This document shows, in pieces, positions 2,411-62,354 of a stretch of DNA of 64,000 nt; positions within the stretch are counted from its first letter, which is position 1, and every line of letters starts with the position of its first letter. The notes below the pieces were generated by a model. The model searched no databases, was not told where the DNA came from, and saw only the letters and a program-made list of their open reading frames with translations. The stretch is from positions 806,001-870,000 of the forward strand of contig NZ_VKKY01000003.1 of NCBI RefSeq assembly GCF_008271695.1. The letters run 5' to 3'. The translations under genes and the position numbers were made by a program. This DNA is from Rufibacter hautae. Lineage in GTDB: Bacteria; Bacteroidota; Bacteroidia; Cytophagales; Hymenobacteraceae.

Positions 2411-2445
2411 GTTTAGCGGCCGTTTTTCTAAAATTGGCAGAGAAC
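2411..2445. repeat. Family A hairpin repeat
   Basis: GTTTAGCGGCC, then a TTTTT-CT-AAAA core, then GGCAGAGAAC. It is an imperfect copy of the dispersed T-rich/A-rich hairpin, located upstream of the M48 gene. Confidence 0.5.
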
Positions 2446-2523
2446 TTGCTATTAAGTGATTACGCAATGATTTGACAGCTTCTGCGTTGAATCAAATAGC
2501 CTGTTCTTCTGTTATAAAACTAC

Positions 2524-3468
2524 ATGGAAAAGCATATGAAAAAGGTTCTTTTATCAGTACTTACCGGTCTTTTTCTGACCGGTGCATCGGTGGCGACACC
2601 GGCTGTGGCTGAAGCGAAGGGAGGAGCTGCAACCGCATATGCAGCGCCTGCCGCGGTGGGGGCCAGAGATATTATCACCGAGATTATTGATGTGGTAGGG
2701 CTGAAGCCTCGGTTTGAGGTGCGCGCTGCCAACGTTCCTAACGCGGCTGCCGTGATCATGAACGGCAAGCGCTATATTCTCTACAATGAGAACTTCGTGA
2801 GCACGCTGAACAATGCGCTTAGAACTGACTGGGCTGGGGTGAGCATTCTGGCCCACGAGATTGGCCACCACCTGAACGGGCACACCCTTACACAAGGCGG
2901 CAGTAACAAGCAAGATGAATTGGAGGCCGATGAGTTCTCTGGGTTTGTGCTCCGGAAAATGGGTGCCTCGTTAAGCGAAGCCCAGGCCGCTATCAAAGCC
3001 TTAGCTGACGAAGAAGATAATTACACGCACCCGGGCAAAAGCTCCCGCCTTACTGCCATTAGCAGAGGCTGGCGGAACGCCCAGGAGCAGATCCTGGCTA
3101 GCGCTAAAGCCGGTACACCAAACCGCACGGTGGCTGGCGTAAGCCGTCCCATCATGTCTGAGTCAACTGTTGCCGCTAACACCACCAGCAGACGTCCTGC
3201 CACCACCTCCAGAAGAGGGTCTGAGCAGATCATGCGCCAGGTGAGACTGCAGAGCGCCCCCCAGGAACGTCTCTACGTGACCACCTCCTATAACCTGGTT
3301 CGGGAAACCGAAGATGGCCTGGAGGTGATTGGCAAGCTGCAGAAAACCAAAAGCAGCAAGTTCCCTTACGTACTGGAGAGCCGCTACTTCTCTTACCTGT
3401 TCGTAAGCACAGACGGATTGCTCCTGAATGAATCTGGCCAGCGGGTGGGGGTGCTCACCACTACCTAA
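2524..3468 (+). CDS. Secreted M48-type zinc metalloprotease
   Basis: 314 residues. A signal peptide (about 1-30, MKKVLLSVLTGLFLTG core) precedes a gluzincin protease domain. The zinc site HEIGH spans residues 111-115 and continues HLNGH. The third ligand is expected in ELEADEF (132-138), the arrangement of M48 peptidases. The C-terminal 130 residues have a Ser/Thr/Arg-rich linker and an unrecognised domain. The mature enzyme should act in the periplasm or outside, perhaps on misfolded envelope proteins. A second in-frame ATG four codons later (2536) is equally plausible as start. Flanked by a terminator and family A repeats on both sides, so it is probably monocistronic. Confidence 0.85.
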   Translation: MEKHMKKVLLSVLTGLFLTGASVATPAVAEAKGGAATAYAAPAAVGARDIITEIIDVVGLKPRFEVRAANVPNAAAVIMNGKRYILYNENFVSTLNNALRTDWAGVSILAHEIGHHLNGHTLTQGGSNKQDELEADEFSGFVLRKMGASLSEAQAAIKALADEEDNYTHPGKSSRLTAISRGWRNAQEQILASAKAGTPNRTVAGVSRPIMSESTVAANTTSRRPATTSRRGSEQIMRQVRLQSAPQERLYVTTSYNLVRETEDGLEVIGKLQKTKSSKFPYVLESRYFSYLFVSTDGLLLNESGQRVGVLTTT

Positions 3469-3491
3469 GCTGCCTCAACATATAAGCCTTG

Positions 3492-3527
3492 AAACGCTGC
3501 CTTCTTCCAAGAAGGCGGCGTTTTTGT
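3492..3527 (+). terminator. Rho-independent terminator of the M48 gene
   Basis: A 15-base stem, 3492-3506 with 3509-3523 and one G-T wobble, has a two-base loop and is followed by TTTTTG. Confidence 0.85.
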
Positions 3528-3561
3528 TTTCAGGTCGATTTCCTTAAACCAGGCCAAAATC
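3526..3561. repeat. Family A hairpin repeat
   Basis: GTTTTCAGGTC and GGCCAAAATC arms surround a GATTTCCTTAAACC centre. The copy starts on the T-tract of the preceding terminator. Confidence 0.45.
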
Positions 3562-3604
3562 AGCGCAAGGCCTTAGCGCAGGTGCAGGATTCCGAATTTT
3601 GCCG

Positions 3605-3613
3605 TACCTTTTG
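3605..3613 (+). promoter_or_regulatory. TAnnTTTG-like promoter box abutting a start codon
   Basis: TACCTTTTG, one T longer than the Bacteroidota -7 consensus, ends three bases before the ATG at 3617. The transcript would start at or beside the ATG. Confidence 0.5.
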
Positions 3614-3616
3614 GAC

Positions 3617-4546
3617 ATGAACTTCTCTAAGTCTCTACCAGCCCTTTTGATGGCTTCCTTCAGCGTATGTACGCTTAGTTTTACCTCCTGCGCCCAGGAC
3701 GTCATTCAGCAACCTGCCCACAGCCAGGCCCTGAAAGACGTACAGATCCTGGCCGCCGATTCTTTGGGTGGCAGGCTGCCCAATACGCCGGGTCACGCCA
3801 AAGCGCAGCAGTACCTGGTGCAGCGTTTCCAAAGCATCGGGTTGAAACCGGTGGGCACCCAGTATCAGCAGAACTTCAAGTTTACGCCACGCAACGCTTC
3901 GGCGGAGGTGCAGGGGGTGAACCTGGTGGGCATGATTCAGGGCAAATCAGACAAGGTGATTGTGATCTCGGCGCATTATGACCACGTGGGAACGCGCAAC
4001 GGAAAGGTCTTCAACGGCGCCGACGATGACGCCTCCGGCATTGGGGCCATTCTGGCCATTGCCTCGCACTTCCAGAGTCAGAAGCCGCAGCATACGCTCG
4101 TATTTGTGGCCTTTGATGCCGAGGAACAAGGCCTTCGGGGTTCCAAAGCCTTCGTGGCCAACCTGCCTTTCGCCAAAGAACGCATTCTGCTGGACGTGAA
4201 CCTGGACATGGTGAGCATCTCAGAAAAGAACGAGCTGTATGCCTCCGGGGCGTATCATTACCCATCCTTTAAGCCTTTGCTGGATAAAGTGAAGGTCCCC
4301 GAAGGACTGAACCTGCGCTTCGGCCATGACCGCCCGGAACAGGGCCATGATGACTGGACGCAACAGTCTGACCACGGCAGTTTCCACAATGCCAAAATCC
4401 CTTTTATCTACTTCGGGGTAGAGGACCATCCGCATTACCACCAAGAAACCGATGAGTTCAGAAACATTCACCAGGCCTTCTACCTGAAAGCGGTAGAAAC
4501 CATCCTGCGGGCTGTGCAGGTATTGGATAAAGAGTTGCCTAGCTAG
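3617..4546 (+). CDS. Secreted M28-family metallopeptidase
   Basis: 309 residues from the ATG at 3617; the frame extends six codons upstream to a TTG, but that stretch overlaps the promoter box. A signal peptide with TSCAQ suggests a secreted protein or lipoprotein. The M28 aminopeptidase domain shows the co-catalytic zinc ligands: SAHYDHVG, NGADDDASG, FDAEEQGLRGS, LDVNLDMVS, and a late DHPHYHQETDEF His motif. M28 enzymes remove N-terminal residues from peptides. This is the compact type without a PA domain, unlike the M28 protein at 11.5-13.2 kb. Ended by a strong terminator. Confidence 0.9.
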   Translation: MNFSKSLPALLMASFSVCTLSFTSCAQDVIQQPAHSQALKDVQILAADSLGGRLPNTPGHAKAQQYLVQRFQSIGLKPVGTQYQQNFKFTPRNASAEVQGVNLVGMIQGKSDKVIVISAHYDHVGTRNGKVFNGADDDASGIGAILAIASHFQSQKPQHTLVFVAFDAEEQGLRGSKAFVANLPFAKERILLDVNLDMVSISEKNELYASGAYHYPSFKPLLDKVKVPEGLNLRFGHDRPEQGHDDWTQQSDHGSFHNAKIPFIYFGVEDHPHYHQETDEFRNIHQAFYLKAVETILRAVQVLDKELPS

Positions 4547-4578
4547 AATTTAGCCATTCGTTATCAGGTTATATGCCT

Positions 4579-4627
4579 AAAAACCTTTTTGCCTCATTTC
4601 ATGAAAATGAGGCAAAAAGGTTTTTTT
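4579..4627. terminator. Strong bidirectional-type terminator
   Basis: A 21-base perfect stem, 4579-4599 with 4604-4624, has a CATG loop with A-runs on the left and T-runs on the right. Confidence 0.9.
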
Positions 4628-4798
4628 ATGGGCCACCTACTTTCTAGCTGTGCTTTCATTAAAGGGCTTTTTATGGCATAATATGTGCTAAACATGCCCA
4701 AAAACCTATATTTGTATTAATCCAAGAAGTAAAACCCTGTAAAATATAAACCGTTTAAGACCTAGTGCCTAAATTGATGTTTAACCAACAACGAAAGC

Positions 4799-5287
4799 AT
4801 GGTCAAAAACCAAACATATGGACTTCTACTTTTAATTCTTCTACCTTTTCTGAAAGAAATTTCAGGGTCAACTACGCCGGCTCCTGCCATGCCGGCCATA
4901 AATCACCCGGTAGTCATCAAGTCCCCGCCCAAGCTACCGGCCTCTGAGGATGCGGTGCACATCAATGTGGATGCCTCGGTCTACTTCCCAGAAGAAGCGC
5001 AGACCGATGAAGATCCCTTTGTCACCGCCGATGGCTCGCTTATCAATGAGCAGAATCCGCGGCAACACCGTTGGCTGGCCTTGTCCAGAAACCTGCTGTC
5101 GCGGTGGGGGGGCCAGATAGAATACGGCGATTCTGTGCGGGTAGAGGGTATCTCGCCCCAAATGGATGGCACCTATGTGGTGCGCGACGCCATGCACCGC
5201 CGCATCAAGAACCGCATAGATATCCTGGTTGGACCCAACGACAAAATCATGGGTTACTGGGAAGACGTAAAACTCATCAAATTATAG
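4799..5287 (+). CDS. Exported protein with a 3D (double-psi barrel) domain
   Basis: 162 residues. An N-terminal hydrophobic segment (7-20) serves as signal peptide, then a Pro-rich stretch to about 50. The C-terminal part (91-162) matches the 3D domain: RWLALSRNLL, a GDSVRVEGI strand, TYVVRDAMHRRIKNRIDILVG split at 125-145, and a final GYWEDVKLI strand. Of the three Asp residues that name the domain, two align (Asp130 and Asp141) while the first position appears as Ser96. In other bacteria 3D domains are found in peptidoglycan lytic transglycosylases and Rpf-like proteins. Here catalytic activity is doubtful. A frame starting at 4765 is a shadow. Confidence 0.65.
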   Translation: MVKNQTYGLLLLILLPFLKEISGSTTPAPAMPAINHPVVIKSPPKLPASEDAVHINVDASVYFPEEAQTDEDPFVTADGSLINEQNPRQHRWLALSRNLLSRWGGQIEYGDSVRVEGISPQMDGTYVVRDAMHRRIKNRIDILVGPNDKIMGYWEDVKLIKL

Positions 5288-5310
5288 AGAATACTAGTTT
5301 GTAGAACATG

Positions 5311-5348
5311 GAAGGCCCCGTCTTTTAGTAGGCGGGGCCTTCTTGTTT
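5311..5348 (+). terminator. Rho-independent terminator
   Basis: GAAGGCCCCGTC (5311-5322) pairs with GGCGGGGCCTTC (5331-5342), followed by TTGTTTT. Confidence 0.85.
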
Positions 5349-6203: not shown

Positions 6204-6239
6204 AGATTTAAGTTATAGTGAATGTGTTATAGGATGAGG

Positions 6240-6271: not shown

Positions 6272-6279
6272 GTGGTTGC

Positions 6280-6975: not shown

Positions 6976-7158
6976 ACGTTCGGTTATGGTTTATAACTTC
7001 CATGAACGTGAACTTCCGTGTCAGGTTTAAGAAAAATAAGACTAGTGCTATATTGTAGGAAACCTAGAAGCCTCTAATGCTTTGGAGGTATTTAGCCAAA
7101 ACAGGCGCAAAAACGCCTTACGCCAAGAAAACAGAAGGGAAGGCCGATCATCATCTGC

Positions 7159-10853: not shown

Positions 10854-10871
10854 TTTCAGCCTCTACAACAT

Positions 10872-10924
10872 AAACAACAAAGCGGCCTCCACTTGCATGA
10901 TAAGTGGAGGCCGCTTTGTTGTTT
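10872..10924. terminator. Bidirectional terminator, 23-base perfect stem
   Basis: 10872-10894 pairs without mismatch with 10902-10924 around a seven-base loop, with A-rich left and T-rich right ends. It separates convergent genes. Confidence 0.95.
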
Positions 10925-10989
10925 ATGGATTTAGGATAGCGTTTAGGGACTTCTTTTACAAAAATGGCCACAAAACAAAGGAGCCAAAC

Positions 10990-11403
10990 TCAGGCAATCA
11001 GGACCAACGTGCCTGCAATGATGAGCCCGGCGCCAATAGCGGTTTTCAGGGTCAGGGCCTCGCCCAGGAAAACGACGGAGAGCAGAATGGCGATGGCCAC
11101 GCTGGCTTTGTCTACCGGCGCTACCTGGGAGACCTTGCCCAATTGCAGCGCTTTGAAATAGAAAATCCAGGAAAGACCGGTGGCCACCCCAGACAATAGC
11201 AGGAAGGTCCAGTTGGTTTTGGAAAGATCTGTAACGGTGCCCAAGCTGCCTTTCACCAGTATAATAGACCAGGCCAATACCAGAATGACCACCGTCCTGA
11301 TGGCCGTAGCCAGGTCAGAGTCCACGCCTTTGATGCCCATTTTGGCGAAAACGGCGGTTAAGGCCGCAAAAACAGCCGAGAGAAGCGCATACATCCACCA
11401 CAT
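10990..11403 (-). CDS. Single-domain EamA (DMT superfamily) transporter
   Basis: 137 residues forming one EamA repeat: about five hydrophobic helices, including WMYALLSAVFAALTAVFAKMG and the closing AIGAGLIIAGTLVLIA (each split across helices). Conserved FYFKALQLGKVSQVAPVDK and FLGEALT patterns are typical. Full EamA proteins carry two such repeats; one-repeat forms are thought to work as dimers. Likely an inner-membrane exporter or importer of small metabolites; substrate unknown. Confidence 0.85.
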   Translation of the reverse strand: MWWMYALLSAVFAALTAVFAKMGIKGVDSDLATAIRTVVILVLAWSIILVKGSLGTVTDLSKTNWTFLLLSGVATGLSWIFYFKALQLGKVSQVAPVDKASVAIAILLSVVFLGEALTLKTAIGAGLIIAGTLVLIA

Positions 11404-17473: not shown

Positions 17474-17509
17474 GTTTTAGGCTTATTTTAGAGAAAACAC
17501 GGCCTAAAC
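17474..17509. repeat. Family A hairpin repeat
   Basis: GTTTTAGGC, TTATTTT, AGAG, AAAACAC, GGCCTAAAC. It begins on the base after the recR stop codon. Confidence 0.7.
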
Positions 17510-17518
17510 AGCCCACAG

Positions 17519-17547
17519 AGCAGGAACATGTGTTCCTGCTTTTTTTA
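17519..17547 (+). terminator. Terminator of clpS-recR
   Basis: AGCAGGAACA, TG, TGTTCCTGCT, followed by seven T residues. Confidence 0.9.
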
Positions 17548-22409: not shown

Positions 22410-22450
22410 GAAACGACATGCGCGGTTTAAAAACTACTACTCCAAAATAG

Positions 22451-22491
22451 AAACGGCCTCCTGCTCATCTGAACAGGAGGCCGTTTTTATT
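22451..22491. terminator. Bidirectional terminator by hemE
   Basis: AAACGGCCTCCTG (22451-22463) pairs with CAGGAGGCCGTTT (22474-22486), followed by T-rich sequence. On the minus strand it lies just after hemE. Confidence 0.85.
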
Positions 22492-22520
22492 TCTTTTTTT
22501 AAAAAAGGGGTAGAAATTAC

Positions 22521-23575: not shown

Positions 23576-23603
23576 TGAGTCCTGAGTTCTGAGTTCTGAG
23601 TCT
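23576..23603. repeat. Heptanucleotide array (TGAGTYC) x4
   Basis: Four contiguous 7-base units TGAGTCC, TGAGTTC, TGAGTTC, TGAGTCT, 12 bases upstream of the hemE promoter box. The same unit recurs at 54065. Confidence 0.85.
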
Positions 23604-23644
23604 TGCGTCAGAAAAATGGGACGTGTAGGTTTCTGGCGATGGCT

Positions 23645-23680
23645 GTTTGGAAGCTGATTTTGGGAAAGCAGGCCCAAAAC
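23645..23680. repeat. Family A hairpin repeat
   Basis: GTTTGGAAGCTGATTTTGG and GAAAGCAGGCCCAAAAC, between hemE and marC. Confidence 0.65.
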
Positions 23681-34396: not shown

Positions 34397-34420
34397 GGCG
34401 TTACAGGGTAACGCCGCTAC
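34397..34420. repeat. Family B palindrome with GCTAC tail
   Basis: GGCGTTAC-AGG-GTAACGCC followed by GCTAC. The 57838 copy has GACGTTAC-GGT-GTAACGTC plus GCTAC: both arms changed together. Confidence 0.75.
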
Positions 34421-34422
34421 GG

Positions 34423-34466
34423 ATCTGTTCTGAGCCTGTTTTCTGTAAAACAAGCTCAGAACAGAT
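34423..34466. repeat. Family A hairpin, extended near-perfect copy
   Basis: ATCTGTTCTGAGC, C, TGTTTT, CTGT, AAAACA, A, GCTCAGAACAGAT. A 19-base-pair stem just after the pseudouridine synthase stop on the minus strand; it may also act as its terminator. Confidence 0.75.
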
Positions 34467-35123: not shown

Positions 35124-35158
35124 GTTTAGGGCGTGTTTTTCTCAGATCAGGCCTAAAC
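35124..35158. repeat. Family A hairpin repeat
   Basis: GTTTAGGGCGTGTTTTTC, TCAG, ATCAGGCCTAAAC. Confidence 0.65.
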
Positions 35159-35238
35159 TGCCGTTACCTGTGATAAAGGAAACCGGAAGTCATTTTCCCT
35201 TTCATGTTTTCTTAACAACGGCAAAAAAGACGTAAAAT

Positions 35239-35681: not shown

Positions 35682-37769
35682 TTATAAACTGCCGTAGAAA
35701 CGCCGCAGCGCCCACTCAGCACACGCTAAACCTAGTAATAGGAAGTAAAACCAGGGTTGTTCCAGCAGGTCTTTTTCTTCCTCGTGGCTGCGCAGAATGG
35801 TTTTGAAGTTGGCTTTGATCAGGTCTTGCTCCAGTTGGGCAAGTTGAGCAGGATAGTACAGGCGAGTCTCCGACCGCTCCGCGATCTGGCTCAGCAAACT
35901 ATGGTCGGCCACGGCCAGGAGCGACTCCAGGTTCTGTTCCTGCACCACAAACTCGCCGGCGTCTGTGTAGTTCTGGTTTTCTACCCTCGCAGACGCGGTG
36001 TAGCGGTACACACCCACGGGTAGGTTGCCCAAGCGCAGCCCTTCGCCGCCCTGCTCATGCCTAAAACGATGCCGGGTCTGTTTGCCACCCTCGTGGGTGA
36101 GCGTGAGTGAGATGTCCTGCCCGAAGATTTCCTCCTGCACCGCATTGAACACATCGGCCTGGAGCGTCACACCTTCCGATGCCTCAAACTCGTCTTTGAC
36201 CGGGTACACGTGCAGGCGCTTCTGGTTCCGGCGGTTGGCCAGCAGCTGTACCAGGTGCGTCATGAGCTCGTCGTAGATCTGGGAAGAACCGTGGTCCACA
36301 GACTCGGTGAGGCGCCATTGCCAACTGCCATCGGTGAGAAGCACCGCGGATGGGGTAGGAGCGGCGGGTTTGTAGACCAGAAGCGGTTTGGTGGTTCTTA
36401 CGGCGCCTACCTGTTGCTGCAGGATGACCTCGGCGGCCGGCGCAATCCGCCAATCACCGAAGGTGACAGGTGTGGGCGGCCAGGCTTTGATACGGGACTG
36501 GGCAGTGGGTTCGGCGGAGAACCGCTGGAAAGCGGCATTGAGCAAGGGCTGCACCTCGTCAAACTGCGGCGACGGCCGGTTGATCTGCACGCCAGCCTGA
36601 AGGGAGTTGAACGCGTTGAAATCGGTCTGGGCGCCCAGGATGTAGAACGTGGGCACACGGGCGGTCCTTAATCGGCGGAGCCAATCTGTACCCACCCCAG
36701 TGGCATTAGGGATCTGGTGGAGGATGGCCGCATCATAAGGCGTCTTAAACGAGGGGTTCTGGAAAGGCCCCAGTACTACCTCCACATCCAGCAATTGGTT
36801 TGTGCGCAATGCGCTTCGCAGGGCTTTGATATCGGGGTGGGGGGCAGCAGCGGCCACCAGCACCTTCAGTTTGCCTTTGATCACCTCCAGGTACGCGTGC
36901 CGGCTGTTGTTGATGTTCGTGAACTCGCCGGTGAGGGGCTGCACCTGCACCTGAAAGTGCTTTTTACCCGGCTGGGCGGCGGTCACCTGGAACGAGGTCT
37001 GTACCGTGCCGCCGCGGGGCAGGGAAACCGTTTTACGCTGCACGGTTTTCCCGTTTTCCTGCAGCAGGACCGTGGCAGTGGTGCCGTTGAAGCCGTTATG
37101 CCGCACGCGCGCCACCACTGGGAAAGATGTGCCTGTGTAGTTGATTTTGTTGTATTGCACTTCCTCCAGCACCACATCGCGCTTGGCCACGGTATCGCCT
37201 AAGGCCAGGGGGTAAATGGGCGCATTGTATAGCTGGAAAGTAGGAGTGGGACCTTGGTTATGAATGCCGTCAGAGATGAGCACGGTGGCTGCCAGGTTCT
37301 GGTTCCGAAGGGCCCGGTCGCCTTTTTCCACCAGGGCGTGCAGGTTGGTCACCGGCGCTTTGAGCGGGGTTTGGGCAAAAGAATTAACCACCGTATCACC
37401 TTCCTGCATGGACTGTTTTACTACTTCCAGCCCACTTTTCTGCAGCCTATCGGCTAGGGCATCCAAGCCCTGCAGGGTGCGGCCCAACTCGGCCTTGGAG
37501 GTGAACAGTCCCACCGATTGGGAGTTGTCCAGTGCCAGCACCACTTTGGGTTTTACTTCCTCCTGCCTGATGCGGCGGGTATACGGCTCCAGCAGCAGAA
37601 AACACACCAGCGCCACCAGCAGCGCCCGCAGCGAAGCCAGGAGCAAGCGCAAGCCCATGGGCCAGGGACCGCCCCGGCGGTACATGAACCAGGAAACACC
37701 TAGCCCTGCCGCCAGGCAAAGCAATGCATACCAAGGAGAATAAGCAGTGTGAATTTGGAGTGATTGCAC
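35682..37769 (-). CDS. VWA-domain membrane protein
   Basis: 695 residues with a GTG start (no ATG in frame near the N-terminal helices). Two N-terminal helices (about 13-30 and 40-60) precede a von Willebrand A domain with MIDAS start LALDNSQSVG (Asp81, DxSxS form) and TVLISDGIHNQG. A long beta-rich extracytoplasmic region follows, including a glutamine-amidotransferase-like stretch (about 300-390, VLVAAAAPHPDIKAL). One C-terminal helix (WFYFLLLGLACAEWAL). Such proteins are common beside MoxR/BatA aerotolerance genes, but none are here. Role unknown. Confidence 0.75.
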   Translation of the reverse strand: MQSLQIHTAYSPWYALLCLAAGLGVSWFMYRRGGPWPMGLRLLLASLRALLVALVCFLLLEPYTRRIRQEEVKPKVVLALDNSQSVGLFTSKAELGRTLQGLDALADRLQKSGLEVVKQSMQEGDTVVNSFAQTPLKAPVTNLHALVEKGDRALRNQNLAATVLISDGIHNQGPTPTFQLYNAPIYPLALGDTVAKRDVVLEEVQYNKINYTGTSFPVVARVRHNGFNGTTATVLLQENGKTVQRKTVSLPRGGTVQTSFQVTAAQPGKKHFQVQVQPLTGEFTNINNSRHAYLEVIKGKLKVLVAAAAPHPDIKALRSALRTNQLLDVEVVLGPFQNPSFKTPYDAAILHQIPNATGVGTDWLRRLRTARVPTFYILGAQTDFNAFNSLQAGVQINRPSPQFDEVQPLLNAAFQRFSAEPTAQSRIKAWPPTPVTFGDWRIAPAAEVILQQQVGAVRTTKPLLVYKPAAPTPSAVLLTDGSWQWRLTESVDHGSSQIYDELMTHLVQLLANRRNQKRLHVYPVKDEFEASEGVTLQADVFNAVQEEIFGQDISLTLTHEGGKQTRHRFRHEQGGEGLRLGNLPVGVYRYTASARVENQNYTDAGEFVVQEQNLESLLAVADHSLLSQIAERSETRLYYPAQLAQLEQDLIKANFKTILRSHEEEKDLLEQPWFYFLLLGLACAEWALRRFYGSL

Positions 37770-44050: not shown

Positions 44051-44130
44051 CGGCCAACTCTTAAAACCTTAACGAAATAGTATCCGCTTTACCTGTTCTT
44101 CGAGTAAACCCAAGGATGCTCACTTCTGCC

Positions 44131-44181
44131 GAATTCCCGTTTAGGAGCCATTTTTAAAAAATTGTCCCTAAACGGGAATTC
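44131..44181. repeat. Family A hairpin, extended copy
   Basis: GAATTCCCGTTTAGG pairs with CCTAAACGGGAATTC, with an ATTTTT-AAAAAAT-type centre. A 51-base near-perfect palindrome between the small membrane protein and the MFS stop; probably also a terminator. Confidence 0.8.
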
Positions 44182-44185
44182 GTTT

Positions 44186-45581: not shown

Positions 45582-45619
45582 GCGTTTCAGAGCCGATTTT
45601 TCAAAAACAGGCGGAAAGC
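45582..45619. repeat. Family A hairpin repeat
   Basis: GCGTTTCAGAGCCGATTTTTC, AAAAACAGGCGGAAAGC. Confidence 0.6.
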
Positions 45620-48222: not shown

Positions 48223-48262
48223 CTGTTTCGGGGCCATTTTCGCCAAAACGGCCCTGAAACAG
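48223..48262. repeat. Family A hairpin repeat
   Basis: CTGTTTCGGGGCCATTTT, CGCC, AAAACGGCCCTGAAACAG. The outer arms GTTTC/GAAAC differ from the GTTTT/AAAAC of other copies but still pair. Confidence 0.8.
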
Positions 48263-51881: not shown

Positions 51882-51924
51882 AGTTTCCGTTTTCAAGACC
51901 GTTTTAGAAAATAGGCCTGAAACT
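51882..51924. repeat. Family A hairpin repeat
   Basis: AGTTTCCGTTTTCAAGACCG, TTTTAGAAAA, TAGGCCTGAAACT. Confidence 0.55.
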
Positions 51925-53171: not shown

Positions 53172-54068
53172 ATGAATTCAAACCAAGATCCAACCCAGCA
53201 GCAAGACCCTCAGGAGAAGTTTGACAAACCGCCCTTCAGCGAGTCCACGCAGAGTGAACCGGGCGAAGAATCAGAGATGGACATAAAGCCGGACCACGGC
53301 GAGGAATCTTACAAGGGCTCGGGAAAACTGACCGGCCGCAAAGCCATCATCACCGGGGGCGACTCGGGGATTGGGAAAGCGGCGGCCATCGCGTTTGCGC
53401 GGGAAGGGGCCGATGTGCTCATTTCGTACCTCAACGAGGAAGAAGACGCCCGCGACACCGCCAAATGGATTGAGCAGGCGGGCCGCAAAGCGGTGCTGGT
53501 GCCCGGCGACATCACCGACGAGGCCCACTGCAAGGCCATTGTGCAGCGCGCCGTAGACGAGTTCGGGCAGATTGACATTCTGGTGAACAACGCCGCGTTC
53601 CAGATGGCGCGGGAGTCTATGCAGGACATCTCCAGCGAGGAGTTTGACAAAACGTTCAAGACCAATGTGTACGCCATGTTCTACCTGTGCAAAGCCGCCG
53701 AGCCGCACATGAAGCCGGGCGCCACCATCATCAACACCACCTCGGTGAATGCCTACAAGCCCTCGCCCATGCTGTTGCCGTACGCCGCCACCAAAGGCGC
53801 CATCCAGAACTTCACCGCCAACCTGGGCCAGATCCTTGCCGACAAAGGCATCCGGGTGAACTGCGTGGCCCCTGGCCCCATCTGGACGCCGCTCATCCCT
53901 GCCACCATGCCCAAAGAGAATGTAAAAACCTTCGGGAAAGATACGCCGCTGAAACGCCCCGGCCAACCCGTGGAGCTATCGGCGATCTACGTGCTGCTGG
54001 CCTCGGAAGACTCCAGCTACATGACCGGTTCCACCGTGCAGGTCACCGGCGGTACTCCTACGATTTAG
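53172..54068 (+). CDS. Stress-type SDR oxidoreductase with acidic N-terminal extension
   Basis: 298 residues from the ATG at 53172. An N-terminal polar extension of about 50 residues (QDPTQQQDPQEKFDKPPFSE) precedes the SDR core: TGGDSGIGKAA, NNAA with a missing final Gly, Ser in NTTSVNAY, and YAATK with catalytic Tyr/Lys. The layout matches YhdF/YhxD-type glucose-dehydrogenase-like stress proteins of Bacillus. Cytoplasmic, NAD(P)-dependent, substrate unknown. The stop codon is the first bases of a heptanucleotide array. Confidence 0.88.
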   Translation: MNSNQDPTQQQDPQEKFDKPPFSESTQSEPGEESEMDIKPDHGEESYKGSGKLTGRKAIITGGDSGIGKAAAIAFAREGADVLISYLNEEEDARDTAKWIEQAGRKAVLVPGDITDEAHCKAIVQRAVDEFGQIDILVNNAAFQMARESMQDISSEEFDKTFKTNVYAMFYLCKAAEPHMKPGATIINTTSVNAYKPSPMLLPYAATKGAIQNFTANLGQILADKGIRVNCVAPGPIWTPLIPATMPKENVKTFGKDTPLKRPGQPVELSAIYVLLASEDSSYMTGSTVQVTGGTPTI

Positions 54069-54099
54069 TCCTGAGTCCTGAGTCCGGAGTTCTGAGTCA
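54065..54099. repeat. Heptanucleotide array (TGAGTYC) x5
   Basis: TTAGTCC, TGAGTCC, TGAGTCC, GGAGTTC, TGAGTCA. It includes the stop codon of the SDR gene and uses the same 7-base unit as 23576-23603. Confidence 0.85.
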
Positions 54100-54102
54100 T
54101 AG

Positions 54103-54148
54103 AAACCGAATCGGGCCTGTTTTTTGAAAAACAGGCCCGATTCGGTTT
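54103..54148. repeat. Family A hairpin, perfect 22-base-pair copy
   Basis: 54103-54124 pairs without mismatch with 54127-54148 around a TG loop. The core is GGGCCTGTTTTT / AAAAACAGGCCC. Followed by TA-rich sequence, it can terminate transcription of the SDR gene and is the clearest member of the family. Confidence 0.9.
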
Positions 54149-55569: not shown

Positions 55570-57717
55570 TTACTCCGCGGTGATTACATAAATATGGCTG
55601 GTAAGGGCAGCGGCATCCGGAGAGATGGGCAAGCCTACTTTCATGAGGTAATCACCGGAGAACGTTTTTCCGTTGGCCGCGAAGTTGGATTTGGTGCCCG
55701 GGAACAGGTTGATTTCCTGGATGGAGTACTTCTTCTGCGGGTCCAGGCCTTGCAACGTCACGGGGAACATGGTCTCGTTGAAACGTGTGTGCAGGTTGTA
55801 GGAATACAGCACGGCTTTGTCTTTGGCCGGTGCCACGTACATAACGGCCGCCCGGTTGCCCTCATAGGGCGAGAGCAGGCGGTAATGGTCGCCTTTCCAG
55901 ATGACCTCGCTCAGGCGTTTGTAGTTTTTCACCGCCTGTTGGCTGAAGGCCAGTTCGTCTTTCGTCCACTTGTCAATCTCCTGGTCGAAGCCCAGTTTGC
56001 CCATCATGGCCACATCGGTACGGAATTTCAGCGACTGCTTGCCCCAGGAAGTCACGTGGCTGGAAAGCGCGATGGACGGGAAGAAATACGAGTAGCCCCA
56101 CTGGATGAAGACGCGCTCCACGCCATCGGTGTTGTCGCTGGGCCAGAACGAGGTGAAGTAGGGCAGGGCGCCATAATCGGTGCGGCCGCCGCCGCCGGAG
56201 CAGAGCATGATGGGCAAATGCGGGTGCTTTTTGCGCAAACGGTCCAGGATTTTGTACAGGCTGCGGGTGTACTCAATGTACAGGTGCGATTGGTTTTCCT
56301 TCAGGTACGGCGAGTAGGCGTTGGTCATCATGCGGTTGTTGTCCCACTTGATATAGGCGATGTTGGGGTGCTTGGTGAGCAGCTTGTCCACCACATCAAA
56401 GACAAAGTCCTGCACTTTGGGGTTGACCAGGTCCAGAATGAGCTGGTTGCGGTACAGGTGCTCCTCGCGGTTGGGCAGCTTCAGGATCCAGTCAGGGTGC
56501 TTCTCGTAGAGCTCGCTTTTGGGGTTCACCATCTCGGGCTCCAGCCAAATCCCGAATTTCACGCCTTTGCTCTCGGCTTCTTTGATGAGGTGCCCGATGC
56601 CGTTGGGAAGTTTCGCTTTGTTTTCCTGCCAATCGCCTAAGCCGGCGCCGTCGCTGTTGCGGGGGTATTTGTTTGCGAACCAGCCATCGTCCAAGAGAAA
56701 CAAGTCTACGCCCAGGGTGGCGGCATCTTCAAACAAACCGGCCAGTTTCACCTCGTTGAAGTCAAAGTAGGTGGCCTCCCAATTGTTGAGCAGCGTGTAG
56801 CGCGACTCATTCCCGTCCAGGATGCCGTAGTTGCGGCCCCAGCGGTGGAAGTTGCGGCTGGCGGTGCCTTTGCCCTGGGTGCTGTAGGTGAAAATGAACG
56901 CGGGGGTGGTGAAGGTCTGGTTTCTGGGCAGTTTGTACTCAGAGGCGTACGGGTTCATGCCGGCCACCACGCGCAAAGACTGTTTCTCGTCCATGTCAAA
57001 CGCAAAGCGGAAGTTTCCGGTCCAAGCCAGCGTACCGGCCAGTACCTCGCCGGTGGTTTCATCGGCTAGTTTGTTTTTGGACAGGAAGAACACCGGCGTC
57101 TGGTACATGTTAGCCCGGCTGCCTAGTTTGCTGTCCAGCACCTTGGTACCGTTGGTGAGTTTGCTTTCCTCCATGCGCATCTCCTCGGCCCAGTCGCCGT
57201 GGAACTGGGTGAGGTAGTACTGCGGCGCATCGAAGTGCAGCATGGCCGAGGCGTACTGCGTCAAGATTACCGGTTTCTTTTCCTGGTGTTTGATCTCGGT
57301 CCACGTTTTGATGACGTCTTCCTGAAAATAGGCCGAAAAGTGCAGCGTCACCTCCACGGGGTATTTGGGGTCTTTGAGCGTGATGTGCGCGGTGGTGACG
57401 TTGTCCTGTTTCTCGGTGCGGCTGGAGGCATACCGTAAATCCAGCGACGGGTTGCCGTCATTGTGCTGCACCCTGATGGCGGGTTCAAACAGGTTGTCGG
57501 TGCCAGCGGGCACATAAGCCTCGTGCTCAGGTTGCAGTTTGGTGTACTCAGTGGCGTCGGTCAGTTTGGGCCCCAGGTAGCTCTGGTACAACTTCTGATT
57601 CGCGCCCACAGACAAAACCAAGTGCACGTTCTTCGTCTCAATCACGAATTCGTTTTTGGTCTGGGCCTGGGCTACGGCGGTTAGGGAAACTAAAAGGATA
57701 AGGAGGAATCGCTTCAT
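55570..57717 (-). CDS. Exported GH36 alpha-galactosidase
   Basis: 715 residues from the ATG at 57717. Signal peptide to AVAQAQ. GH36 catalytic barrel: LFLLDDGWFANKYPRNSDGAGL (split), GIWLEPEMVNP, YIKWDNNRMM with the nucleophile Asp, and CSGGGGRTDYG then SFWPSDNTDGVERV with the acid/base Asp. It removes alpha-1,6-linked galactose from raffinose-family or galactomannan oligosaccharides in the periplasm or outside. The oxidoreductase gene lies 193 bases downstream on the same strand. A long antisense frame is a shadow. Confidence 0.92.
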   Translation of the reverse strand: MKRFLLILLVSLTAVAQAQTKNEFVIETKNVHLVLSVGANQKLYQSYLGPKLTDATEYTKLQPEHEAYVPAGTDNLFEPAIRVQHNDGNPSLDLRYASSRTEKQDNVTTAHITLKDPKYPVEVTLHFSAYFQEDVIKTWTEIKHQEKKPVILTQYASAMLHFDAPQYYLTQFHGDWAEEMRMEESKLTNGTKVLDSKLGSRANMYQTPVFFLSKNKLADETTGEVLAGTLAWTGNFRFAFDMDEKQSLRVVAGMNPYASEYKLPRNQTFTTPAFIFTYSTQGKGTASRNFHRWGRNYGILDGNESRYTLLNNWEATYFDFNEVKLAGLFEDAATLGVDLFLLDDGWFANKYPRNSDGAGLGDWQENKAKLPNGIGHLIKEAESKGVKFGIWLEPEMVNPKSELYEKHPDWILKLPNREEHLYRNQLILDLVNPKVQDFVFDVVDKLLTKHPNIAYIKWDNNRMMTNAYSPYLKENQSHLYIEYTRSLYKILDRLRKKHPHLPIMLCSGGGGRTDYGALPYFTSFWPSDNTDGVERVFIQWGYSYFFPSIALSSHVTSWGKQSLKFRTDVAMMGKLGFDQEIDKWTKDELAFSQQAVKNYKRLSEVIWKGDHYRLLSPYEGNRAAVMYVAPAKDKAVLYSYNLHTRFNETMFPVTLQGLDPQKKYSIQEINLFPGTKSNFAANGKTFSGDYLMKVGLPISPDAAALTSHIYVITAE

Positions 57718-57837
57718 GGGTTGTGTGGCTGGCAATGAAGAGAGCAATATACATTTTCTTGGCGTATGCCGGTAGCGCCTGGTAAGAAGGTGGGCAACCC
57801 TTTCGTTTATGTCGTTGCTGTCACATGGAATGAGTAC

Positions 57838-57896
57838 GACGTTACGGTGTAACGTCGCTACAGGGCAAATATGTAGCGTCGTTGCACTGCAACGAC
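57838..57896. repeat. Double family B palindrome in inverted arrangement
   Basis: GACGTTAC-GGT-GTAACGTC plus GCTAC, an 11-base spacer, GTAGC plus GTCGTTGC-ACT-GCAACGAC. Two hairpins face each other through GCTAC/GTAGC. Confidence 0.8.
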
Positions 57897-58065
57897 GTCA
57901 TCCGGCAGGATGAAAGGGCGCTGCCTTCCCCAACCAAAGCCCGCCCGGGGCAAAAGCACCTGTCACCCGCGGGATTTCTAAACCTTGGCCTTTAACAACC
58001 AGATTCTTCTTGAATGGCCAATTTCAGAACCCATCTGGAGAAACTCCTGCCGGAAACAGGAAAGC

Positions 58066-59572: not shown

Positions 59573-59592
59573 GAATTTTCACATCAGCATTG

Positions 59593-59627
59593 AAAAGGCC
59601 TGGGCTCTGCCCGGGCCTTTTTGTTTT
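59593..59627 (+). terminator. lpdA terminator
   Basis: AAAAGGCCTGGGC, TCT, GCCCGGGCCTTTT with one T-G wobble, then TTGTTTTT. Confidence 0.9.
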
Positions 59628-59658
59628 TAGGCCTTTTTTAAAAAAACCAGCTTAAAAC
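59623..59658. repeat. Family A hairpin repeat
   Basis: GTTTTTAGGCCTTTTTT, AAAAAAACCAGCTTAAAAC, directly on the T-tract of the lpdA terminator. Confidence 0.6.
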
Positions 59659-59819
59659 AGAAGTCCATTTCGGCTGTTCTAAGAAAATATAGCGGAGACT
59701 TTAAACCTTTGGGCATCAAAAGGCTCCAATTAGCCCCGGTTCCTTGACACTTATGTGTTTTGGGGCCGTTTTTATCAAAAGAGAATCATTCCAGTACGCG
59801 TACTTTAAAAATCCCCCGC

Positions 59820-62285
59820 ATGAAACATCTCCTCCGGCTCTCTATTATCTGTATCCTTTTGTTTGGCTATACCGCTGCCCAGGGTCAGGGCAAGATCACG
59901 GGCAAGCTGCAGGATGCCACCACCAAACAGCCGGTAGGGTATGCCACGGCCGCGCTCCTCTCTGGCCGCGATTCTGCCATTGTGAGCAGCGCCCTGGTAG
60001 ACGGGGATGGCACTTTCACGGTGGCCCCGGTGGCGGCCGGTAGGTACCACCTGAAGGTTTCCTTTGTGGGGTATGCTACCCGCGTGGTGCCCAACATTGA
60101 GGTAAGCGCCGCCGCGCCCTCGGTGGATCTGGGGGTGATTGCCATGCGGTCGGCGAGTACGCAGTTGAAGGCCGTGGAAGTGGTGGGCCAGCGCGCGCAG
60201 GTAGAATACGGTCTGGACCGGCGGGTGTATAACGTGGGGCAGGATCTGTCTACCGTGGGCGGCACGGCGGTAGATGTGATGCAGAACGTGCCCTCCGTCA
60301 CTGTTGACCAAGAAGGAACCGTGAGCATGCGCGGCACCTCCAACATTACCATATTGATTGACGGCAAGCCCTCAGCGCTGAGTGGGCTGGGGCTGGACCA
60401 GATTCCGGCTAGCACCATTGACCGGGTAGAGGTGATTACCAATCCGTCGTCTAAATACGATCCCAGCGGCACGGGCGGCGTTTTAAACATCATTTTAAAA
60501 AAAGAGAAGCAAAGAGGCTTGAACGGAGTGGCTTCAGTAAACGCCGGCATGGGTAACCGCTACAACACCTCACTCAACCTCAACTACCGCTTCGGCAAGC
60601 TGAACCTGTTCACCAACTATGATTTCCGGCAAGATTACCGAAAAGGCACCGGAAGCGTTTTCCGGACAAATTATAGGCGAGAAGAATCTAAACCGGATTC
60701 TACTTCATATCTGGAGCAGGAGTCGGAAAACGAAAACCGGCGGGGAAACCACAACGTCCGCTTCGGGGCAGATTACCAGCTCACTGATAAGCAAAGTATC
60801 ACGGGTTCGGTGCTGTATAGGTACGGCTATCGTGAAAATGACGGGAACACTTTTTACCGGTTTTTAGAGGAAAACCGGTCGCTCAACAGCACCTCTAACA
60901 GAGCCACCACCGGTGATGAAACCAGCCGCCTTTTTGAGTACACGCTTGGCTACCGCATGACCTTTGACAAACCCGGCCGCGAGTTAACCGCCGATGCCGT
61001 GTTCAACCAGGAAGAGGAGCGTGGGCAGGATGATTTCAGGCAATTGTTTTACAACGCAGAGGGCCGTGAAACGCCAGCCAGAAACGATCTTCAGAAAAAC
61101 CAAGGTCTGGAAAAAGAGCGGGAGTTCTCATTGCAGGTAGATTATGTGCATCCGTTCAGCGAAAAAGGGAAATGGGAGGCCGGTTACCGCAGCACCTTTG
61201 AGCGCAGCGACGAAGATGTGCAAGCCACCGAGTTTAACAGAATCTCCAGACGCTATGAAAACAGCATAGGCCGTACTAACCACTTTGTATATGATGAATG
61301 GGTGCACGCGGTGTACGGAAACTACGGCGATGCCATTGGCAAATTCAGTTACCAGTTGGGCTCACGGCTGGAGCAAACCAACATTGTCACAGACCAGATT
61401 ACCCAGGGCAAGCGCAACAACATTGAGTACCTGAACCTGTTTCCCAGCCTTTTCCTGACCTACGAGTTCTCCCAGGAGCAGAAAGTGCAGACCAGTTACA
61501 GTCGCCGCATTGACCGTCCGTGGACGGGCCAGTTGAACCCGTTCCGGGATGTTTCTGATGCCCTGAATGTACGGGAGGGAAACCCGAACCTTCGGCCTGA
61601 GTTCACGGATTCGTATGAGGTAAACTACCTGCACTTCTGGAAAGAAACCACCGCCACGGTAGGCGTTTTCTACCGCCGAATGACCGATGTGGTACAAAGC
61701 ATCCGCAATCAGTTTACCACCGAAAACGGGGAAAATGCCACGCTGTCTACCTTCCAAAACATCGCCTCAGGCGAATCTTACGGGTTGGAGTTAACCGGAA
61801 CCGCCAACCTGTTCAAATGGTGGAGCCTCAACGCTAACGTCTCCGGTTTCAATTACAAGATAGACGCCACTGAGCAGGGCCTGGCCTCCAACAGCCGCCT
61901 CAGCTGGACCAGCCGTCTTAATTCCAACTTCACCTTGCCGTACAAAACCGAAGTGCAGCTTTCCATGAATTACCGGTCGCCCACAGTAACAGTGCAGGGG
62001 GAGCGTTCTTCGTTCTTCACCACCAGCCTGAGTGCCCGCAAAGAAGTATTTGGCGGAAAGGGTAATATCATCTTGCGGGTGCAGGATGTATTCAACACCA
62101 TGCGGTTTAACTCGTACACGTTTTCAGAAGGACAGTTTGAGGAAACCAGCCGTTACAAGCCTCAAAGTCAAATTGTGTTTGTTGGTTTCAGCTACCGTTT
62201 CGGGAATGTGTCGCAGAAAAAGGAGCGGGGCGAGAACGAAGGCGAATTGCCAAATGGTCCAGAGCGGGAAGTGGAAGGAAACTAA
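59820..62285 (+). CDS. Outer-membrane beta-barrel receptor with CarboxypepD_reg domain
   Basis: 821 residues from the ATG at 59820 (frame opens 20 codons earlier). Signal peptide to AAQGQ, then a carboxypeptidase-regulatory Ig domain (GKITGKLQDATTKQPVGYAT, about 25-105), a plug-like segment (VDVMQNVPSVTVDQEGTVSM, ILIDGKPSALSG), and a long barrel of the Outer_memb_beta-barrel_3 family. Related in layout to the receptor at 45.8 kb but clearly diverged. Imports an unknown nutrient; no SusD gene is adjacent. The C-terminus is polar. Confidence 0.9.
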   Translation: MKHLLRLSIICILLFGYTAAQGQGKITGKLQDATTKQPVGYATAALLSGRDSAIVSSALVDGDGTFTVAPVAAGRYHLKVSFVGYATRVVPNIEVSAAAPSVDLGVIAMRSASTQLKAVEVVGQRAQVEYGLDRRVYNVGQDLSTVGGTAVDVMQNVPSVTVDQEGTVSMRGTSNITILIDGKPSALSGLGLDQIPASTIDRVEVITNPSSKYDPSGTGGVLNIILKKEKQRGLNGVASVNAGMGNRYNTSLNLNYRFGKLNLFTNYDFRQDYRKGTGSVFRTNYRREESKPDSTSYLEQESENENRRGNHNVRFGADYQLTDKQSITGSVLYRYGYRENDGNTFYRFLEENRSLNSTSNRATTGDETSRLFEYTLGYRMTFDKPGRELTADAVFNQEEERGQDDFRQLFYNAEGRETPARNDLQKNQGLEKEREFSLQVDYVHPFSEKGKWEAGYRSTFERSDEDVQATEFNRISRRYENSIGRTNHFVYDEWVHAVYGNYGDAIGKFSYQLGSRLEQTNIVTDQITQGKRNNIEYLNLFPSLFLTYEFSQEQKVQTSYSRRIDRPWTGQLNPFRDVSDALNVREGNPNLRPEFTDSYEVNYLHFWKETTATVGVFYRRMTDVVQSIRNQFTTENGENATLSTFQNIASGESYGLELTGTANLFKWWSLNANVSGFNYKIDATEQGLASNSRLSWTSRLNSNFTLPYKTEVQLSMNYRSPTVTVQGERSSFFTTSLSARKEVFGGKGNIILRVQDVFNTMRFNSYTFSEGQFEETSRYKPQSQIVFVGFSYRFGNVSQKKERGENEGELPNGPEREVEGN

Positions 62286-62318
62286 GGGTAGACAGAGCGG
62301 CGCTTTGGTTGCTTCTGC

Positions 62319-62354
62319 GTTTCAAGGACCGTTTTATGAAAACGGGCTTGAAAC
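62319..62354. repeat. Family A hairpin repeat
   Basis: GTTTCAAGGACCGTTTT, ATG, AAAACGGGCTTGAAAC. Outer and inner arms both pair, with changes in both arms relative to other copies. Confidence 0.8.

What the first reader, a model, noticed from the sequence alone, without database searches (positions are those of the whole stretch)
2411..62354. A family of about two dozen degenerate hairpins sits at gene boundaries
Seen: intergenic copies share a layout of outer T-rich arm, GGCC-like block, TTTT, 2-4 base loop, AAAA, GGCC-like block, A-rich arm (about 35-50 bases). Examples: 17474-17509, 48223-48262, 54103-54148, 62319-62354, 44131-44181, 34423-34466. Arms differ between copies, yet pairs are kept (GTTTC/GAAAC, GTTTT/AAAAC, GTTTAGG/CCTAAAC), so structure is under selection. 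Most lie near stop codons or between genes. Inference: a REP-like or RNA-structure element. I know of no description of it.
Basis: partly seen in the sequence, partly recalled or inferred. Interest (0 to 1): 0.8.

Follow-up and report, generated by a model that had tools for sequence, protein, structure and literature searches.

The report
Genus-wide palindromic DNA mark in Rufibacter
A loose 36-letter mirror-image DNA motif, repeated about three thousand times along the chromosome of one bacterial genus and not found in the relatives searched, has its key letters preserved even inside genes, which suggests that an unknown protein reads it.

Summary
The family is real and larger than reported: 46 sites of 15 bits or more in the window against 1 in the reversed window; about 3,160 extrapolated to the genome. 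It is not mainly a hairpin. It is a 36-bp two-fold symmetric DNA motif with four T/A tracts roughly in helical phase. For most copies arm pairing barely exceeds what column composition gives. About 10% are near-perfect inverted repeats, many forming the tip of terminator-like stems. Copies are only slightly more alike than independent columns predict. Sites persist at orthologous places while flanks diverge, and core letters are kept at third codon positions inside genes (67 of 72 against 69% expected, z 4.5). All 16 held genomes of the genus (Rufibacter/Sabulibacter) have it; 104 genomes of five sister genera stay near background. Species differ in 'dialect' at the same loci. Low-GC islands are poor in it. 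Best reading: a chromosome-wide site for an unidentified DNA-binding protein, architectural role favoured, DNA-uptake or self signal as main rival. REP/RAYT and RNA-structure readings fit poorly.

The parts
1446..1481 (.). 36-bp palindromic site, weak, tandem gap
   Evidence: 16.6 bits
2411..2446 (.). 36-bp site, tandem gap 2313..2656
   Evidence: 24.7 bits; similar sites in L028, L029, L041
3526..3561 (.). 36-bp site, tandem gap, directly after a terminator-like hairpin 3491-3524
   Evidence: 33.1 bits; stem
4584..4619 (.). 36-bp site inside a long hairpin 4579-4625, tandem gap
   Evidence: 23.7 bits; stem
4669..4704 (.). weak 36-bp site, tandem gap
   Evidence: 16.0 bits; aligned G051 sequence below threshold
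7079..7114 (.). 36-bp site, tandem gap
   Evidence: 22.3 bits
8223..8258 (.). 36-bp site, tandem gap
   Evidence: 34.6 bits
10046..10081 (.). 36-bp site inside coding sequence (M24 peptidase gene)
   Evidence: 21.6 bits; 17.9-21.6 bits in L028, L029, L041
10941..10976 (.). 36-bp site, convergent gap, next to hairpin 10869-10927
   Evidence: 31.0 bits; hairpin
11328..11363 (.). weak 36-bp site in coding sequence
   Evidence: 16.7 bits
11511..11546 (.). 36-bp site, tandem gap
   Evidence: 24.5 bits
14168..14203 (.). 36-bp site, tandem gap
   Evidence: 29.1 bits
15229..15264 (.). 36-bp site in coding sequence (DPP IV-like gene)
   Evidence: 18.6 bits
16371..16406 (.). 36-bp site, divergent gap as called
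   Evidence: 25.7 bits
17474..17509 (.). 36-bp site directly after a stop codon, before hairpin 17517-17542
   Evidence: 34.6 bits; similar sites in L028, L029, L041
19277..19312 (.). weak 36-bp site in coding sequence
   Evidence: 16.4 bits
19637..19672 (.). 36-bp site, tandem gap
   Evidence: 22.0 bits
20939..20974 (.). 36-bp site overlapping a gene end
   Evidence: 24.9 bits
22119..22154 (.). 36-bp site, convergent gap
   Evidence: 32.0 bits
22483..22518 (.). 36-bp site, same convergent gap, overlapping the end of hairpin 22445-22492
   Evidence: 21.3 bits; hairpin
23645..23680 (.). 36-bp site, tandem gap
   Evidence: 34.0 bits
26198..26233 (.). weak 36-bp site in coding sequence
   Evidence: 15.6 bits
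27365..27400 (.). 36-bp site overlapping a gene end, tandem gap
   Evidence: 28.4 bits
29053..29088 (.). weak 36-bp site in coding sequence
   Evidence: 16.4 bits
30311..30346 (.). weak 36-bp site in coding sequence
   Evidence: 17.5 bits
30422..30457 (.). 36-bp site, convergent gap
   Evidence: 26.2 bits
34218..34253 (.). 36-bp site, tandem gap
   Evidence: 28.2 bits
34427..34462 (.). near-perfect inverted-repeat copy (reader example 34423-34466)
   Evidence: 29.8 bits, 15 of 16 pairs; no aligned site in G051
35124..35159 (.). 36-bp site, tandem gap
   Evidence: 27.2 bits
35240..35275 (.). 36-bp site, same gap
   Evidence: 31.1 bits
37881..37916 (.). 36-bp site, tandem gap; inside the reference copy of repeat family D1
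   Evidence: 37.7 bits
39169..39204 (.). 36-bp site, tandem gap
   Evidence: 32.4 bits
40599..40634 (.). 36-bp site, divergent gap
   Evidence: 29.0 bits
44139..44174 (.). site in long inverted repeat 44130-44182, convergent gap (reader example; the palindrome itself is in a 35-bp register)
   Evidence: 27.5 bits; stem
45584..45619 (.). 36-bp site, divergent gap
   Evidence: 34.0 bits
48225..48260 (.). 36-bp site with good pairing, tandem gap (reader example)
   Evidence: 36.7 bits, 14 of 16 pairs
51889..51924 (.). 36-bp site, convergent gap
   Evidence: 22.5 bits
52740..52775 (.). 36-bp site in called coding sequence
   Evidence: 23.0 bits
54108..54143 (.). perfect inverted-repeat copy with compensated outer letters, convergent gap (reader example)
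   Evidence: 28.3 bits, 16 of 16 pairs
57305..57340 (.). 36-bp site in coding sequence
   Evidence: 24.6 bits
58066..58101 (.). 36-bp site, divergent gap
   Evidence: 31.9 bits
59623..59658 (.). 36-bp site starting just after hairpin 59593-59621, tandem gap
   Evidence: 37.0 bits; hairpin
59757..59792 (.). 36-bp site, same tandem gap
   Evidence: 22.7 bits
60480..60515 (.). 36-bp site in coding sequence
   Evidence: 21.8 bits
62319..62354 (.). 36-bp site, convergent gap (reader example)
   Evidence: 33.0 bits
62996..63031 (.). 36-bp site, tandem gap
   Evidence: 26.7 bits

Best explanation
A DNA-level recognition site, about 3,000 per genome, read by an unidentified dimeric or tetrameric DNA-binding protein of this genus. 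Shown here: a two-fold symmetric 36-bp motif; four (Y)GTTT(T) boxes in -> -> <- <- order with T/A tracts at positions 2-5, 13-16, 21-24 and 32-35; letters conserved rather than pairing; sites kept at orthologous places and at third codon positions; found in one genus of those searched. Inferred: a protein holds the four boxes on one face of bent DNA and so marks or ties down the chromosome roughly every 1.6-2.4 kb, above all between convergent genes, as an architectural or insulating site (supercoil or loop boundary). A minority of sites has been co-opted as the upper part of terminator hairpins. The confidence given is for the architectural role; for 'DNA-level site read by a protein', whatever the role, I would say about 0.85.
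For: Matrix built without pairing: 284 sites against 6 and 6 in controls. G000-G051: 112 of 128 sites in alignable gaps have an aligned partner; over the 54 gap-free ones identity is 93% at the ten core T/A columns, 72% at other motif columns, 70% in flanks. Third codon positions in core columns of 25 coding sites (first two bases unchanged): 67 of 72 kept against 69.1% codon-matched, z 4.5; other motif columns 129 of 182 against 71.5%, z -0.2. Coding sequence holds 61 sites against a mean of 5.4 (largest 8) in ten synonymous shuffles. Occupancy of 100-500 bp gaps in G000 alone (18 bits): convergent 40 of 43, tandem 106 of 174, divergent 22 of 48; empty convergent gaps 3 against 15.5 (sd 2.2) if sites were spread by length; convergent against divergent p 1e-6. 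In G017: 18 of 22, 66 of 101, 13 of 33, with 103 sites in 97 occupied gaps. In G000 tandem gaps with a site lie farther from the next site than those without (medians 1126 and 857 bp, p 0.006). The four tracts add to 3.27 of 4 at 10.5 bp per turn. Little asymmetry relative to transcription (one column, position 11, reaches chi-square 9.2). Genus-restricted in the samples searched.
Against: No protein was identified. HU looks alike inside and outside the genus, and no extra PF00216 or PF18291 paralogue marks the 6 genus genomes searched (G017 has a weak second PF00216 match, as several outgroup genomes do); other DNA-binding families were not tested. The motif carries far more information than needed to find the sites (27.9 bits against 10.7 in G000; 44.6 against 11.2 in G017), which fits molecular drive at least as well. 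22 of 48 divergent gaps in G000 carry sites. Genes of 6-7 kb can lack sites. A higher interior density in genes over 3 kb, seen when G000, G051 and G017 are pooled (0.15 against 0.066 per kb), is absent in G000 alone (0.097 against 0.089, p 0.82), so I do not count it. The interspecies alignment may pull motif letters together, which the coding test avoids. Gap classes rest on a home-made gene caller with imperfect starts.
Confidence: 0.4

Rival explanations
1. A DNA uptake signal or other self-recognition mark kept by molecular drive: a receptor prefers DNA carrying the motif, so copies accumulate wherever the core genome tolerates them, as is proposed for DUS/USS in Neisseriaceae and Pasteurellaceae.
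For: Excess information over need; dialects within the genus at the same loci; placement in the order convergent > tandem > divergent > coding; low-GC DNA poor in sites (0.54 per 5 kb at GC 0.30-0.40 against 3.44 at 0.53-0.56), including the 20-kb pieces of a defence island (0, 1 and 4 sites, where 32 of 38 pieces have 7-17); co-option into terminators. Permissive placement in the core genome, high conservation and absence from recently acquired genes are described for DUS in PMC2397512 (abstract and passages seen); dialects and terminator pairs in PMC3630211 (passages seen). ComEC (PF03772) is present in 19 of 19 family genomes tested, 4 of them of this genus; Riemerella anatipestifer, also Bacteroidota, is transformable using ComEC, DprA, ComF, RecA and proteins of unknown function (PMC8459023, passages seen).
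Against: PF00437 (type IV pilus/secretion ATPase) is above cut-off in 0 of 6 genus genomes tested. DUS/USS are short and not two-fold symmetric (recalled; the USS 9-mers are quoted in PMC3630211). Convergent gaps are almost always occupied and G017 has about one site per occupied gap. The small contig C6 is rich in sites (3 of 20+ bits in 7.5 kb). I know of no competence in Rufibacter (not searched for separately).
Confidence: 0.33
2. An old REP-like mobile hairpin family that spread in the genus ancestor and decayed.
For: Copy number, 3'-end and convergent bias as reported for REPs (PMC3733652, passages); a near-palindromic consensus, tightest in G017; about 10% near-perfect hairpins; some excess of pairwise similarity: in G000, 9 of 230 copies have a neighbour at 31 or more of 36 letters against 0, 2 and 4 in three shuffles; mean best identity 31.2 against 30.0 in G060, 30.0 against 29.3 in G012, 32.0 against 31.6 in G017; in G017 40 flanking letters also show a slight excess (20.5 against 19.9).
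Against: Decay is not uniform: core columns are conserved while variable ones evolve like flanks. In G017, 156 of 168 sites score 30 bits or more, with almost no decayed tail; G000 has a broader range. Orthologous sites differ in dialect between species. PF01797 does not track the motif. No GTAG/CGTC tag in the flank profile. Of the 16 G000 sites without an aligned partner, read by eye, none is a clean insertion of one copy; the last (gap 226) is gapped on both sides and cannot be read.
Confidence: 0.12
3. An RNA hairpin or a transcription terminator class.
For: Of 116 stop-to-site distances between -10 and 60 nt, 42 are 3-14 nt. Near-perfect copies are almost confined to tandem and convergent gaps (24 of 181 against 1 of 85 in divergent gaps and coding sequence, p 0.001), and many continue into longer stems with T tracts (by eye).
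Against: No general covariation; copies in coding sequence and divergent gaps; of 80 occupied convergent gaps of 60-500 bp, 40 have a terminator-like hairpin separate from the site, 35 an overlapping one, 5 none (permissive detector, G000 and G051 pooled); no U tract or clear strand polarity in the motif.
Confidence: 0.07

Closest known systems
DNA uptake sequences (DUS, Neisseriaceae) and uptake signal sequences (USS, Pasteurellaceae)
   Same: Thousands of sites, permissive placement in the core genome, high conservation, absence from recently acquired genes, dialects among relatives, inverted copies in terminators (PMC2397512 abstract and passages, PMC3630211 passages).
   Different: 36-bp two-fold symmetric motif with four phased tracts instead of a short asymmetric core; no pilus ATPase above cut-off in the 6 genus genomes tested; uptake function untested.
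REP / GTAG- and CGTC-tagged palindromic repeats and RAYT
   Same: 20-40 bp palindromic, mostly between convergent and unidirectional genes (PMC3733652, abstract and passages).
   Different: No tag, no RAYT association, no conserved pairing for most copies, letters maintained in place.
HIP1, highly iterated palindrome of cyanobacteria
   Same: Very abundant palindromic motif, function unsettled (PMC4390886, start of abstract in a listing only).
   Different: HIP1 is an 8-mer linked to methyltransferases; this is a long degenerate site.
Phased A-tracts linked to nucleoid proteins
   Same: T/A tracts in helical phase, proposed role in nucleoid compaction (PMC3940949, abstract seen).
   Different: There a diffuse genome-wide periodicity; here one defined motif of fixed length and symmetry.

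Membership tests
REP/RAYT repeats | Stem pairing kept across copies | tested here: not met
   Bulk copies pair little more than column shuffles; about 10% exception
REP/RAYT repeats | RAYT (Y1_Tnp, PF01797) gene tracks the repeat | tested here: not met
   Found in 32 of 37 genomes, all six genera; none in genus member G017
REP/RAYT repeats | GTAG or CGTC tag at one end (most REPs) | tested here: not met
   Profile of 20 nt on each side of 284 sites shows only weak S-Y before the first G; definition from PMC3733652
REP/RAYT repeats | Intergenic, convergent/tandem bias | tested here: met
   G000: 40 of 43, 106 of 174, 22 of 48 gaps occupied
DUS/USS uptake signals | Thousands of dispersed sites in the genome | tested here: met
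DUS/USS uptake signals | Absent from recently acquired DNA | tested here: met
   Fixed 20-kb pieces of the defence island hold 0, 1 and 4 sites; low-GC windows poor; but contig C6 is not poor
DUS/USS uptake signals | Uptake through a type IV pilus-type machine | tested here: not met
   PF00437 above cut-off in 0 of 6 genus genomes; other uptake routes possible
DUS/USS uptake signals | Raises DNA uptake | not testable with these tools
   needs transformation assays
Intrinsic terminator | Stem followed by U tract at the site itself | tested here: not met
   Seen only for a minority
HU/IHF-family binding site | Cognate HU/IHF paralogue restricted to the genus | tested here: not met
   6 of 16 genus genomes searched
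Rfam families | Match at gathering score | tested here: not met
   0 in the window

The most novel reading that the evidence does not exclude
The first chromosome-wide identity signal known in Bacteroidota: a long palindromic site read by a new kind of DNA-binding protein, kept by uptake or recombination bias or by chromosome packaging, and evolving dialects across a genus at thousands of fixed loci.
Probability: 0.4. Interest if true: 0.9.

Novelty: new variant of a known kind. Interest (0 to 1): 0.72.

Why it matters
Few genome-wide motifs are known that are maintained rather than simply copied (DUS, USS, HIP1, Chi-like sites; the last recalled), and what keeps them is debated. Here is one with 28-45 bits per site, in-phase tracts, a sharp phylogenetic boundary in the samples searched and dialects at orthologous loci, in a phylum for which my paper searches listed none. 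It makes 'selection or drive?' testable in one genus, and its reader may be a new nucleoid or uptake protein.

Tried and rejected
RNA structure: tested by column shuffles, all-against-all column pairs and species comparison; rejected for the bulk. RAYT. HU/IHF: (a first script, extracted no HU protein; two of 30 HU translations, L134 and L137, came out wrong). Type IV pilus. An early reading that the three gap classes are alike at matched length (small numbers) was withdrawn. A claim that long genes hold more interior sites was withdrawn because it is not seen in G000 alone; I lowered the architectural reading from 0.42 to 0.40 for that. AT-richness as the cause: rejected, since low-GC windows hold fewer sites and backwards controls are low. 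Half-site scores correlate weakly and positively (r 0.13, p 0.09 in G017; r 0.12, p 0.005 in G000), so there is no sign of compensation between halves. Viral contigs: 1 contig with a match to a strict form, not followed. Papers: the nine searches listed no description of this motif; only open-licence full texts are searched.

Limits: genes were called with a simple codon-score caller with imperfect starts. The matrix was trained on part of the data it scanned. One search pools G000 with G051, whose 400 kb is largely orthologous to one of the two G000 stretches, so its 419 gaps are not independent; one search gives G000 alone. The 54-kb island (2 sites of 15+ bits against 180 in the 275 kb before it) had its borders taken from site deserts, so the fixed 20-kb pieces and the GC windows are the fair measure. 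The terminator detector is permissive (25 of 80 divergent gaps also gave a hit). G060 shows a recurrent variant with a shorter right arm (by eye) that the fixed-length matrix undercounts.

Full report
What is there. The window is G000:C3:806001-870000 of a 5.84-Mb genome. Named relatives place it in Rufibacter: Rufibacter sp. SYSU D00344 is 94% identical at one window protein, and genome G051 shares that record's contig length of 1383058. Every quoted example contains one copy of a 36-bp motif. Built without any use of pairing, the motif reads GTTTtnrGscyGwTTTy-nn-rAAAwCrgsCynaAAAC, with T or A at 85-98% in positions 3-4, 14-16, 21-23 and 33-34 and looser letters elsewhere.

Chance. In 464 kb there are 284 sites of 12 bits or more against 6 in a shuffled and 6 in the reversed sequence. 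In 764 kb there are 418 sites of 15 bits or more against 4 reversed, which extrapolates to about 3,160 per genome. A ten-letter skeleton pattern has 2,290 matches in the genome against 73 for the pattern read backwards (overlapping registers are counted).

Mostly not a hairpin, and at most weakly a copied repeat. In G000, 9 of 230 copies have a neighbour at 31 or more of 36 letters against 0, 2 and 4 in three column shuffles. In G060, G012 and G017 there is a small excess in mean best identity (31.2 against 30.0, 30.0 against 29.3, 32.0 against 31.6), partly because some copies are better palindromes than columns predict. Pairing: per-pair z values run from -1.7 to 3.4, with 7 of 21 at 2 or more, all in the outer arm or flanks. 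25 of 230 copies have 16 or more of 20 pairs against 2.3 expected. In G017, 20 of 164 copies have 15 or 16 of 16 pairs against 8 expected. The near-perfect copies of G000 are 17 of 135 tandem, 7 of 46 convergent, 1 of 33 divergent and 0 of 52 coding sites; in many the stem continues outward into a terminator-like stem with a T tract (by eye).

Where the sites lie. Of 285 hits in 464 kb, 138 lie in 205 tandem gaps, 46 in 42 convergent gaps, 35 in 42 divergent gaps and 65 in called coding sequence. In G000 alone, over gaps of 100-500 bp, a site of 18 bits or more occurs in 40 of 43 convergent, 106 of 174 tandem and 22 of 48 divergent gaps; pooled with G051, 66 of 69, 162 of 274 and 30 of 76. Terminator-like hairpins coexist: of 80 occupied convergent gaps of 60-500 bp, 40 have a separate one, 35 an overlapping one and 5 none. 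Coding sequence holds 61 sites against a mean of 5.4 in ten synonymous shuffles.

Maintenance. G000 against G051 (212 reciprocal best hits, median 94.7% identity): in 163 orthologous gaps of 40 bp or more, both have a site in 102, neither in 53, only G000 in 7, only G051 in 1. Of 128 G000 sites in alignable gaps 112 have an aligned G051 site; 11 G051 sites have no G000 partner. In 54 gap-free alignments the core columns are 93% identical, the other motif columns 72% and the flanks 70%; in the 20 chosen for diverged flanks the figures are 85%, 58% and 52%. In 25 coding sites of 22 genes, third codon positions in core columns are kept in 67 of 72 cases against 69.1% codon-matched expectation; in 3 of the 25 the site as a whole is lost or not alignable in G051. 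G000 against G017 (123 reciprocal best hits, median 79%): of 60 comparable gaps, both have a site in 34, neither in 16, only G000 in 8, only G017 in 2; in the gaps printed (45 of 60) the two sites often lie at nearly the same distance from the gap start.

Dialects and information. G017 sites follow a much tighter consensus, GTTTTTGGCCTGTTTTCT per half, with 44.6 bits, although they occupy largely the same gaps as the looser G000 sites (27.9 bits over 40 positions). About 11 bits would suffice to find sites at this density in either genome. In G017, 156 of 168 sites score 30 bits or more; G000 shows a broader range. G060 and G012 also have tighter consensuses than G000 (46 and 34 sites).

Distribution. 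All 16 held genomes of the genus have 1,071-3,344 skeleton matches (backward control 41-100). The 104 sampled genomes of five other genera stay near their controls; the largest departures are in genus g4 (222 against 145, 200 against 138) and one g5 genome (14 against 3). In a phylum sample a stricter pattern gives 633 in this genome (control 1) and 0-4 in the 295 others. Of 76 loci from Pontibacter, Pedobacter and others, 2 have one site of 20 bits or more, against 7-15 per locus in the four Rufibacter/Sabulibacter loci. Low-GC 5-kb windows hold 0.54 sites against 3.44 at GC 0.53-0.56. The 20-kb pieces of a stretch with type I restriction, Piwi-domain, OLD-like, resolvase and integrase genes hold 0, 1 and 4 sites of 15+ bits, where 32 of 38 pieces hold 7-17. 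Contigs C4 and C5 are poor (4 sites of 12+ bits each in 66.6 and 40 kb), but the 7.5-kb contig C6 has 4, and C7 (5.3 kb, nearly half N) none.

Mechanism. Symmetry, fixed length, in-phase tracts, conservation by letter and conservation inside genes point to a protein that reads duplex DNA; this is inference from sequence. The choice between an architectural role and an uptake or self signal is open. For the first: near-obligate occupancy of convergent gaps, about one site per occupied gap in G017, and wider spacing around occupied tandem gaps. For the second: excess information, dialects, permissive placement, scarcity in islands. ComEC is present, the pilus ATPase was not found in 6 genus genomes, and transformation by ComEC, DprA, ComF, RecA and proteins without known counterparts is reported in another member of the phylum (PMC8459023, passages seen). 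I give 0.40 to the architectural role, 0.33 to the uptake or self signal, 0.12 to a decayed REP-like family and 0.07 to RNA or terminator function.

Noticed in passing
window 57836-57898; also 34408-34421: A second, different repeat (GTAACGTCGCTACA-type, with GTAG/CGTC-like letters) that looks more like a true REP; one orthologous G051 gap carries such a stretch where G000 has none. Its count in the window is only weakly above shuffles (7 against 2.9).
   Followed up: partly
G000:C3:921302-975267 (L148-L151): Low-GC defence island: type I restriction genes (HsdR, specificity subunit), Piwi-domain protein, OLD-like ATPase, resolvase, integrase; nearly free of the motif.
   Followed up: partly
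G024:C1:218564-218595: One skeleton match in a genome of another genus (g4) reads like a true copy of the G017 dialect (listing).
   Followed up: no
window 23578-23616 and 54067-54105: Direct repeat of about 39 bp made of AGTCCTGAGT-like units, 79% identical (D15).
   Followed up: no
G060 stretches, e.g. L183:13419, L184:4251, L186:8091: Recurrent variant of the motif with a shorter right arm.
   Followed up: no
L220:1275-1310 (IMGVR_UViG_2839759663_000002): The only viral contig returned for a strict form of the motif, with one site.
   Followed up: no
window 35682-37769, minus strand: 695-aa open frame without any Pfam match at E 0.001.
   Followed up: no
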